A stretch of DNA of 47,682 nucleotides from Bacteroidales bacterium. Lineage in GTDB: Bacteria > Bacteroidota > Bacteroidia > Bacteroidales > UBA932. The stretch lies in the NCBI GenBank assembly GCA_017458265.1, contig JAFTFV010000061.1, positions 1 through 47,682 of the forward strand, read 5' to 3'. Positions 23,877 to 43,057 of this stretch are shown piece after piece; position 1 is the first letter of the stretch, and every line of letters begins with the position of its first letter. Both the position numbers and the translations under genes were made by a program. The notes beneath the pieces are model-generated. The model saw only the letters and a program-made list of their open reading frames with translations, was not told where the DNA came from and made no database searches.

Positions 23877-24866
23877 TTAACGGAATAATTCCATCGCCTG
23901 GTCCATAGTGAAGGCATCAGAGAGCCGGAAGGAGCCGCTGCGAGAACGGATGAGTCCCGCAAGATGGGCTCCGGAGCCCAGCGCCTCGCCAAGATCTCGT
24001 GCAAATGCCCGGATATACGTTCCCTTGGAGCAGGCTATGCGAATCGTCGCCTCAGGCAGCCCCAGTACCGATGTGTCCTCAAGATGAATTCTTGAGGAGG
24101 CTGTTGACTTTTCGGAAGAGGTAGACTCTCCTGAAACCTCGGACCTTCGGTCCTCGTCCCTCCCATTGTCATCAGGGCCTGTGTGAAAGCAAGCTTTCCC
24201 ACATTCCCTGCCGCCAATGGGCCCCTCCCACTCATGTGCCGTGGGCGGCACAGTTTCCGGAGAGTCTACCTCTTCCGAAAAAGACGCCTCTAGGTAGTTC
24301 AGCAATTCCAGTTCTGATATGGTTATTCTGGAACGATGGAGGGTTTCAAGGGCGGCGGTGTCAAGGTTTCCTGAGCCGGAACGATATAGCTTGCGGGCAA
24401 GTTCGTAGGCGCGGACGCCGTCGACGCTTTTGGCGCTGAAAAGCGGAGCTACCTGCTCCTGTTCGCCTAAAAAGGCTGGCAAGGCTGCGCGCACGGCTTC
24501 TTCTGTTATATGCTCATAGGGGAACATCCTGTCCACGGGCTTCTCAAGGTCATAGGAAGGAGTGGTGGCGCCGAAACGCATCAGCGCTACGTACTCCTTG
24601 TCCGTGTCCTGAAGCGACTGCGCCATCCGGCAGGCAGGGCCGATGCACACCAGAAGGATTCCGGTTGCAAGGGGATCCAGCGTTCCGGCATGGCCAACCT
24701 TCAGGTTCTTCTTACCGAAATGCTTGATTGCCGCGAACTTGAGCTTGCGGATAACATCGGCAGAAGTCCAGCGGAGAGGCTTGTTTACCGGGATGACTAT
24801 GCCTTCAGGGAAGTCTGCTATGTCACGGGAGAGCTGAGCCCCGGGAACAGGGACGAGAAAACTCAT
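23877..24866 (-). CDS. truB: tRNA pseudouridine-55 synthase with an in-frame insertion
   Basis: 329 residues. The catalytic motif GHAGTLDPLATG places the nucleophile at Asp64; KEYVALMRFG, and later SKGTYIRAFARDLGEALG, are family hallmarks. It makes pseudouridine 55 in the T-loop of tRNAs. Between ELELLNY (about 188) and the SKGTYIR strand lies an extra hydrophilic segment (about 190-268) that interrupts the conserved catalytic domain. That segment is encoded by the multi-hairpin element at 24078-24283 and adds no stop or frameshift. Without it the protein would be about 250 residues, normal for this phylum. It overlaps rpiB by 4 bp. Whether the insert is tolerated as a surface loop is inferred. 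Confidence 0.92.
   Translation of the reverse strand: MSFLVPVPGAQLSRDIADFPEGIVIPVNKPLRWTSADVIRKLKFAAIKHFGKKNLKVGHAGTLDPLATGILLVCIGPACRMAQSLQDTDKEYVALMRFGATTPSYDLEKPVDRMFPYEHITEEAVRAALPAFLGEQEQVAPLFSAKSVDGVRAYELARKLYRSGSGNLDTAALETLHRSRITISELELLNYLEASFSEEVDSPETVPPTAHEWEGPIGGRECGKACFHTGPDDNGRDEDRRSEVSGESTSSEKSTASSRIHLEDTSVLGLPEATIRIACSKGTYIRAFARDLGEALGSGAHLAGLIRSRSGSFRLSDAFTMDQAMELFR
24078..24283 (-). repeat. Multi-hairpin palindromic element inside truB
   Basis: On the plus strand, 24108-24137 and 24253-24283 form a 30-bp inverted repeat with one mismatch and one bulge. Inside, read in truB direction, are: hairpin A (24251-24236, stem GTGCCG); stem P2 CCCATTG/CAATGGG (24221-24215 with 24168-24162); stem P3 CAGGG/CCCTG; hairpin B (24202-24181) with GAAAGCTTGCTTTC; and hairpin C (24153-24141, GGACC-GAA-GGTCC). 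A further 7-bp hairpin (24078-24098, CCTCAAG/CTTGAGG) lies just beyond. The order A, P2(B), C and the B core match the two elements 3' of the tRNA-Ser genes. Confidence 0.75.
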
Positions 24867-33745: not shown

Positions 33746-33757
33746 CAAAAAGGAATG

Positions 33758-33786
33758 GCATCGCAGCGCAGCTGCGGTGCTTTTTT
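33758..33786 (+). terminator. Intrinsic terminator of tRNA-Ser(CGA)
   Basis: GCATCGCAG (33758-33766) pairs with CTGCGGTGC (33772-33780), 9 bp with one T-G pair, followed by six T. This is hairpin A of the element and competes with its outer and inner stems. Confidence 0.8.
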
Positions 33787-33829
33787 GATGACTGACCGTT
33801 GAAAGCTTGCTTTCAACGGCCAGACAGCG

Positions 33830-33863
33830 AAAAAGCATTGCGGCCACGAAGTGGTCGCAATGC
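33830..33863 (-). terminator. Oppositely oriented intrinsic terminator (hairpin C)
   Basis: On the minus strand a 13-bp stem (33863-33851 with 33847-33835, TTC loop) is followed by five T (33834-33830). It faces the tRNA terminator and would stop leftward transcription arriving from the sstT/SMR operon. Confidence 0.7.
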
Positions 33864-33977
33864 CATTCTATGCTTTGCAGGGCCCCGCGGCGAGCGGTCA
33901 GGGAAGTCGGAGCGAAGCGACGAAATCCTGGTGGGGAAGGTGCGTGGGGATTGAAGTCGGAGGGCGTCTAAATGAAC

Positions 33978-42788: not shown

Positions 42789-42873
42789 GGAGGTGTGGCC
42801 GAGTGGTCGATGGCGGCAGTCTTGAAAACTGTTGAACGGCAACGTTCCGGGGGTTCGAATCCCTCCGCCTCCG
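42789..42873 (+). tRNA. tRNA-Ser (anticodon TGA)
   Basis: 85-nt class II tRNA. Acceptor GGAGGTG pairs with CGCCTCC, discriminator G at 42873. Loop CTTGAAA gives anticodon TGA at 42823-42825. Long variable arm; GTTCGAATC T-loop; CCA not encoded. It reads UCA and related codons. CAAAAAGGAATG follows, exactly as after tRNA-Ser(CGA). Confidence 0.95.
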
Positions 42874-42885
42874 CAAAAAGGAATG

Positions 42886-42916
42886 CAGCTGGTCGCGTAA
42901 GCGACCGGCTGTTTTT
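42886..42916 (+). terminator. Intrinsic terminator of tRNA-Ser(TGA)
   Basis: CAGCTGGTCGC-GTAA-GCGACCGGCTG, 11 bp with one T-G pair, followed by five T. It is hairpin A extended by bases that otherwise form P1 and P2. Confidence 0.8.
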
Positions 42917-42961
42917 GGCTTCCGGCGGCAGCCAAGCTTGCTTGGATGACGTTGGAAGACG

Positions 42962-42995
42962 AAAACAGCCAGTTGACCCTGTGGGTCAACAGCTG
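42962..42995 (-). terminator. Oppositely oriented terminator (hairpin C)
   Basis: On the minus strand CAGCT plus GTTGACCC pairs with GGGTCAAC plus GGCTG (one bulged T), followed by four T. It faces the tRNA terminator. Confidence 0.6.
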
Positions 42996-43057
42996 CATTC
43001 TATGCTTTGCAGGACCCCTGGCCAAGGGATGTCGGAGGGCGCAGCCCGACGAAATCC

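What the first reader, a model, noticed from the sequence alone, without database searches (positions are those of the whole stretch)
24078..24283. Third multi-hairpin element inserted in frame inside truB
TruB is interrupted by about 80 hydrophilic residues between ELELLNY and SKGTYIR. The DNA there is a 30-bp inverted repeat enclosing hairpins in the same order (A, P2, P3, B, C) as the tRNA-Ser elements. Hairpin B shares the 14-nt core GAAAGCTTGCTTTC with the tRNA-Ser(CGA) copy, and GGCGGCA before B and GATGAC after it are shared with the tRNA-Ser(TGA) copy. This recalls Rickettsia palindromic elements that insert in frame in genes, but in Bacteroidota. The host gene modifies tRNA, which links all three copies to tRNA biology, perhaps by chance.
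Basis: partly seen in the sequence, partly recalled or inferred. Interest (0 to 1): 0.85.

Follow-up and report, generated by a model that had tools for sequence, protein, structure and literature searches.

The report
Flipping hairpin insert inside genes
A tRNA-modifying enzyme gene in a Bacteroidales genome carries, in frame, one copy of a family of small repeated DNA hairpins whose centre is conserved and can lie either way round, while its long paired arms differ from site to site yet stay complementary.

Summary
The truB insert is real: 29-nt arms, 97% complementary, at 24109-24137/24253-24281, inside an intact ORF. It is not a third copy of the tRNA-Ser elements: with a covariance model of its family truB scores 47.1 bits, they 5.3-5.5. 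The family has five clear copies in this genome (truB, tilS, yggS, mtaB, ribF) and a half copy, and matches in 80 of 199 genomes of its family, 6 of 393 of its order and 1 of 295 of its class. The core has covarying helices. Outer arms differ between copies, in 3 of 11 identical-core pairs near chance level, yet stay paired; their GC follows local DNA. At one site in different species arms change on both sides together, and at 5 of 15 sites the centre is inverted. All six reading frames are used. Strand marks (G-T over A-C mismatches 63:18; GNA loops 48:0 over their complement) follow the element, not the host gene. Best reading: a mobile hairpin tolerated in protein loops, arms kept paired and centre flipped by template switching. 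No mobilising enzyme was identified.

The parts
23877..24866 (-). truB (tRNA pseudouridine-55 synthase), host gene, one ORF through the insert
24109..24281 (-). the element, arm to arm (173 nt); element sense = gene sense
   Evidence: R1 match 24261-24192
24253..24281 (-). 5' arm of outer stem P1
24109..24137 (-). 3' arm of outer stem P1
24235..24252 (-). P2 hairpin TGTGCC...GGCACA
   Evidence: sequence; covarying helix 1 (85.3% of cells paired)
24227..24245 (-). CCCAC (24241-24245) complementary to GTGGG (24227-24231): pseudoknot or alternative hairpin to P2
   Evidence: helix 2 (99.3% of cells paired, 2 of 5 pairs with changes on both sides, 3 never vary)
24219..24229 (-). GGGAGGGGCCC, nearly invariant in the family
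24162..24221 (-). long P3 hairpin with AAGCTTGCTT apex (24187-24196)
   Evidence: helix 3
24158..24164 (-). second GGGAGGG
24141..24153 (-). P4 hairpin GGACC-GAA-GGTCC, GNA triloop
33747..33886 (+). tRNA-Ser(CGA) downstream multi-hairpin element; NOT a member
42871..43018 (+). tRNA-Ser(TGA) downstream multi-hairpin element; NOT a member

Best explanation
A family of small, apparently non-autonomous mobile hairpin elements. Shown: a conserved, covarying core of about 60-80 nt (longer when P3 is extended) lies between arms of about 13-35 bp that pair but differ between loci; copies lie outside genes and, in frame and in both orientations, inside protein genes; at 5 of 15 compared sites the core lies in opposite orientations in different species. 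Inferred: the copies move; a genic copy is translated as a tolerated loop; polymerase template switching between the arms repeatedly copies one arm onto the other and inverts the middle; the strand that folds is the element's own sense strand (as RNA or single-stranded DNA), perhaps in a mobility intermediate. Also inferred: at least some insertions carry only the core and take the outer arms from local DNA.
For: Repeat family: (55 of 151 genus genomes by DNA). Covarying core: (93.6% of cells paired, shuffles 81.1; covariation 0.331 against 0.113). Arms site-specific: 99 non-orthologous pairs with core identity 93% or more, median outer-arm identity 0.50; of 11 pairs with identical cores, 3 have outer arms at 0.14-0.41; random pairs average 0.31. 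Local make-up of arms: outer-arm GC 0.52, flank 0.51, rho 0.49, p 7e-10; core GC 0.68, rho 0.09. Concerted arms: (770 pair columns changed on both sides and still paired, 84 changed on one side, 34 otherwise, 976 unchanged, over 78 site pairs that come from 52 copies at 15 sites). Inversion: 4 of the 15 sites, and tilS by comparison of G000 with G057. Arm homogenisation and spacer inversion are what the abstract of PMC8604942 gives for template switching between inverted repeats; the abstract of PMC8794818 says it can create and maintain hairpins. Open frames: 51 of 52 truB-search loci and 34 of 39 murB-search loci show both flanking motifs in one ORF, 6 undetermined, none split; sense frame 2, closed in 142 of 159 copies, is used by 2 of 78 genic copies. 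Strand marks.
Against: Seven of the 11 identical-core pairs have similar arms (0.76-1.0), so arms are often carried along. Outer-arm GC also follows core GC (rho 0.28, p 0.0006), and within G065 the arm-flank rho is -0.52 (n 6). No certain empty site was found: murB in G000 holds one arm only, which may be the original target or a deletion; G003 murB and several G000 sites look like deletions. 11 of 15 sites show no inversion (tilS among them, inverted only against G057). The number of further pair types does not exceed shuffles (16 against 16.6). The G-T over A-C bias does not follow from template switching alone. Perfect inverted repeats of 16 bp or more occur outside elements at about 1 per 53 kb (23 in 1.215 Mb of partly overlapping loci), so insertion into existing palindromes is not excluded. 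Translation is inferred from open frames; the ORFs for the frame counts were chosen as open, and one truB match (G048, no locus taken) has a TGA inside.
Confidence: 0.6

Rival explanations
1. The element is a cis-acting structured RNA (for example a regulator or processing signal in mRNA), its arms kept paired by selection on host transcripts.
For: Strong covariation and G-U tolerance; GNA and CUUG loops.
Against: Genic copies are more often antisense (49) than sense (29) and use six frames; the G-T bias has the same direction in antisense copies (22:6) as in sense copies (8:2), where selection on the host mRNA would reverse it; core orientation differs between species at some sites.
Confidence: 0.12
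2. A RAYT-like Y1 transposase mobilises the element as folded single-stranded DNA, as proposed for REPs.
For: Y1_Tnp matches (E up to 0.001) in 20 of 20 element-bearing genomes that I chose, against 8 of 12 without R1 matches; over the Pfam cut-off 17 of 20 against 7 of 12. Three such proteins weakly match REP_Tyr_transpos. The folded strand is a property of the element.
Against: The genomes were hand-picked. Three of the eight matches in element-free genomes are short or broken (G128, G463, G451), but five are not. Only 3 of 52 loci fetched around Y1 matches also hold an element, near the 1.2 that I estimate by hand from copy number. G089, with 34 element matches, has one weak Y1 match and no element in that locus. 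REP_Tyr_transpos scores are below its cut-off.
Confidence: 0.25
3. Phase-variable inverton: a recombinase flips the segment to switch protein versions.
For: Orientation differs at some sites; invertons are described in human gut bacteria (abstract in the listing, PMC11892184).
Against: Arms fall in 104 clusters without a shared recombination sequence beyond the inner few bases; about half the copies are not in ORFs; switching within a population could not be tested.
Confidence: 0.12
4. Skipped or removed insert (translational bypass or intron-like removal).
For: Strong hairpin.
Against: Frames stay open in truB and murB, and the mostly closed frame is rarely used.
Confidence: 0.03
5. Insertion into pre-existing palindromes, so the arms are old target sequence and nothing is duplicated.
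For: Long palindromes occur about 1 per 53 kb outside elements; arms match local GC.
Against: 78 of 159 copies are genic, where two ready-made arms would be demanding; truB loops without a core are mostly shorter than those with it.
Confidence: 0.2

Closest known systems
Rickettsia palindromic elements (RPE)
   Same: Palindromic repeats of about 150 bp, inserted in frame in unrelated genes (review passage, PMC10969869)
   Different: RPEs are said there to encode a conserved peptide; here all six frames are used and outer arms differ between loci; the host clade differs
REP sequences and RAYTs (GTAG and CGTC families, PMC3733652)
   Same: Short palindromes, some inside genes; CGTC families were found in Bacteroidetes among other phyla and lack a dedicated transposase (passages)
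   Different: REP stems are given as 5-13 bp; here three hairpins lie within a much longer arm pair
MITEs
   Same: Small, apparently non-autonomous, bounded by inverted repeats
   Different: MITE terminal repeats are shared between copies and flanked by direct target duplications (partly recalled); here outer arms are not shared and I saw no direct duplication
Coding palindromes of nematomorph mitochondria (PMC6649704, abstract)
   Same: Long inverted repeats kept inside translated genes
   Different: No mobile conserved core is described in that abstract
Invertons
   Same: Segment between inverted repeats found in both orientations
   Different: No shared recombination site seen; differences seen between species only

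Membership tests
tRNA-Ser downstream elements of the window | Matches the truB family's core covariance model | tested here: not met
   5.3-5.5 bits against 47.1
Rickettsia palindromic elements | Repeat of about 150 bp inserted in frame in unrelated genes | tested here: met
Rickettsia palindromic elements | Conserved encoded peptide | tested here: not met
   six reading frames used
Rickettsia palindromic elements | Sequence homology to RPE families | not tested
   no RPE sequence was fetched
MITE | Terminal inverted repeats shared between copies | tested here: not met
   104 arm clusters among 159 copies; outer arms as low as 0.14 identical with identical cores, though 7 of 11 such pairs share them
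MITE | Direct target-site duplication | tested here: inconclusive
   none seen by eye in the site pairs, but no certain empty site
REP/RAYT system | Y1 transposase gene flanked by the repeat | tested here: inconclusive
   3 of 52 loci hold an element
Known Rfam RNA | Match at gathering score | tested here: not met
   window: three tRNA matches only; five loci with copies: best match mir-4524 on L018, 34.2 bits against a gathering score of 68
Inverton | Switching within one population | not testable with these tools
   one genome per species is held

The most novel reading that the evidence does not exclude
A mobile nucleic-acid core that can move without its terminal repeats and builds new ones at the new site from local DNA as an inverted duplication, so that each copy is framed by its own hairpin stem; the strand that folds is fixed by the element, and the copy may later flip in place, rewriting the host protein's loop.
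Probability: 0.3. Interest if true: 0.88.

Novelty: new variant of a known kind. Interest (0 to 1): 0.74.

Why it matters
It gives natural cases of inverted-repeat arms changing in concert and centres lying in either orientation inside intact genes, and so a way to test how template switching shapes hairpins and proteins. If the arms are made from the target, it is a way of inserting DNA that the usual terminal-repeat and target-duplication rules for mobile elements do not cover. It also warns annotators that loops in conserved enzymes of this family can be repeated DNA.

Tried and rejected
Rfam for a known RNA: none at gathering score in the window or in five loci with copies. Plasmid and phage collections, one 84-nt element-like query, distant mode: no match. 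Host-mRNA selection: made unlikely by the same bias in sense and antisense copies. Orientation against replication by GC skew of flanks: no significant bias, 81 negative and 61 positive of 143. Arms as self-hairpins: mean stem 3.45 against 3.26 in shuffles, sd 0.09, a small excess. RAYT partner: inconclusive. Seven literature searches were answered; I saw nothing on this family in their listings, which are capped, and most subscription papers are not held.

Full report
WHAT IS THERE. The window lies in a 2.13 Mb draft genome (G000). truB runs on the minus strand at 23877-24866 as one 329-codon ORF, with Pfam TruB_N and TruB_C_2 matches on either side of the insert. The element is 24109-24281, 173 nt; its arms are 29 nt and 97% complementary. 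Folded as RNA the stretch gives -101.8 kcal/mol, z -8.2, none of 200 shuffles as low; as DNA, -61.1 for the element-sense strand and -52.4 for the other.

A FAMILY. A DNA search of the same genome found a 90% copy in yggS and partial matches in tilS and mtaB (names). A covariance model (R1, 63 positions, from 30 copies) found five clear copies in G000 (truB, tilS, yggS, mtaB and ribF; ribF named) and a half copy at E 5e-4, with three more matches at noise level. The site of the half copy corresponds to a G057 gene with PG_1098 and THUMP-like domains. In one search, 93.6% of cells are paired against 81.1 in shuffles and covariation is 0.331 against 0.113, with no slid version above 0.068; the count of further pair types does not exceed shuffles (16 against 16.6). 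One helix, CCCTC with GAGGG, crosses or competes with P2; which was not settled. The model matched 10 of 10 relatives that I picked from DNA matches (1-35 matches each), 80 of 199 genomes sampled in the GTDB family (11 of 25 genera), 6 of 393 in the order, three of them in other families, and 1 of 295 in the class, its own. Searches of more than 40 genomes used stricter filters, so these are lower bounds.

NOT THE tRNA-Ser ELEMENT. With filters off over the whole window the truB copy scores 47.1 bits and the next match 9.4; matches touching the tRNA-Ser stretches score 5.3-5.5. The shared AAGCTTGCTT is real and above chance (3 against 0.16). CTTG-loop hairpins are frequent in the family's P3 (14 of 74 hairpins counted as G(CTTG)C or A(CTTG)T), so a shared stable hairpin, or a shared small module, remains possible. 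The exact 14-mer was found in 15 of 388 loci: overlapping views of the truB and yggS copies of G000 and the yggS copy of G057, and L306 and L307 around the tRNA-Ser(CGA) element.

ARMS. Of 159 copies with detectable arms, arms fall in 104 clusters. Among 99 non-orthologous copy pairs with core identity of 93% or more, median outer-arm identity is 0.50 and 69% lie below 0.6; outer-arm columns changed on both sides and still paired number 800, one-sided 84, other 45, unchanged 873. Of 11 pairs with identical cores, three lie at 0.14, 0.25 and 0.41, one at 0.56 and seven at 0.76-1.0; random pairs average 0.31. So arms are sometimes carried along and sometimes new or replaced. Outer-arm GC follows the flanks (rho 0.49, p 7e-10, n 142) and, more weakly, the core (rho 0.28); core GC does not follow the flanks (rho 0.09). 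Pooled within five genomes the arm-flank rho is 0.41, p 0.017, n 34, though one of the five, G065, shows -0.52.

SAME SITE, OTHER SPECIES. Flank comparison gave 78 occupied site pairs, 45 in the same and 33 in opposite orientation. They come from 52 copies at 15 sites, and 4 sites (truB, yggS, murB and the L106/L126 site) hold the inverted pairs (murB named); distant pairs at one site may be separate insertions. tilS, a fifth, is inverted between G000 and G057 with identical arms. The truB copy is inverted between G000 and G057 with flanks 94/92% identical, five arm pairs changed together and one otherwise. yggS is not inverted between these two. In two other species (L278, L280; flanks 93/90%) seven arm pairs changed together and one on one side. 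Pairs with one-sided changes only also exist: L039/L121, L002/L012, L025/L026, L134/L322. The abstract of PMC8604942 names arm homogenisation and spacer inversion as results of template switching between inverted repeats; that of PMC8794818 says the process can create and maintain hairpins. Only abstracts, outlines and, for PMC8794818, the opening paragraphs were seen.

STRAND. Mismatches in arms are more often G-T than A-C in the element-sense strand: 57 to 17 (144 copies), 63 to 18 when repeats within an arm cluster count once (159 copies, p 5e-7). The direction is the same in genic sense (8:2), genic antisense (22:6) and other copies (27:9). P4 loops are C(GNA)G in 48 of 69 hairpins and the complementary C(TNC)G in none; P3, 21 and 2 of 74; background triloop hairpins in 160 loci, 77 and 74 of 1026, a background that does not exclude the elements. 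So one strand seems to fold, and which one is set by the element. That GNA triloops are specially stable in DNA, and CUUG loops in RNA, is recalled, not from a call; RNA and DNA are therefore not told apart.

IN GENES. 78 of 159 copies lie within ORFs of 200 codons or more that span them; frames are sense 19, 8, 2 and antisense 18, 19, 12. The ORFs were chosen as open, but the least used frame is the one most often closed (142 of 159). Independently of that choice, none of 52 truB-search and 39 murB-search loci was split (6 undetermined); one further truB match, in G048, has a TGA inside. By a core-and-arm test 18 of 52 truB-search loci and 6 of 39 murB-search loci carry an element somewhere. 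From the copy positions, L068 and L080 carry it outside truB, and L092, missed by that test, inside; so 17 loci have it in truB, four of which repeat another locus letter for letter in the stretch compared.

LOSS. G000 lacks or has shortened several copies that G057 keeps, with remnants of arm or core left at some. murB is the case of most interest: G057 has the full element, G000 only one arm, joined without core letters; an inverted duplication of native sequence would predict this, but a deletion fits too, and G005 murB also has a single arm, there with the inner arm letters of the element.

MOBILISER. Y1-like proteins of about 300 codons are frequent in these genomes, and three tested match the REP-associated tyrosine transposase model below its cut-off. 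Three of 52 loci around Y1 matches also hold an element. This is not enough to name them as partner.

VERDICT. A genuine and widespread small repeated element, not seen in my seven literature searches, with in-frame coding insertions, unusual arm behaviour and inversion at some sites. Existence and family membership of the truB copy are secure; translation and template switching are likely; mobility is inferred from dispersal; the origin of the arms and the enzyme are open.

Noticed in passing
window 33747-33886 and 42871-43018: Two related multi-hairpin elements directly after tRNA-Ser genes share AAAAAGGAATG...CATTCTATGCTTTGCAGG; found at these two places in G000 and not in G057 or G054.
   Followed up: partly
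L200 murB ORF 945-2027; truB of G051 (L064): Peptides such as GEISPRASLGRNDRRGDFVISSEVEKS look like translated copies of another repeat family inserted in frame in the same genes.
   Followed up: no
L136-L146 (G065): Near-identical copies, all but one with the same full 20-bp arm and most with shared flanks, as if carried in a larger repeated unit.
   Followed up: no
L172-L181 and L247-L252 (G089): A subfamily with AT-rich arms resembling TGAAAAAATTACCTGCATCACTTTC; copies L176 and L177 have the same 73-nt core and different, still mostly paired arms.
   Followed up: partly
G000:C11:96440-96511 (L102): Half copy in a gene whose G057 counterpart has the full element.
   Followed up: partly
window 24077-24097: Short palindrome CCTCAAGATGAATTCTTGAGG just outside the element, in a protein segment conserved in relatives.
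   Followed up: partly
L054 514-573: A truB-search locus has long arms around a short spacer with core-like scraps, perhaps an element with its core deleted.
   Followed up: no
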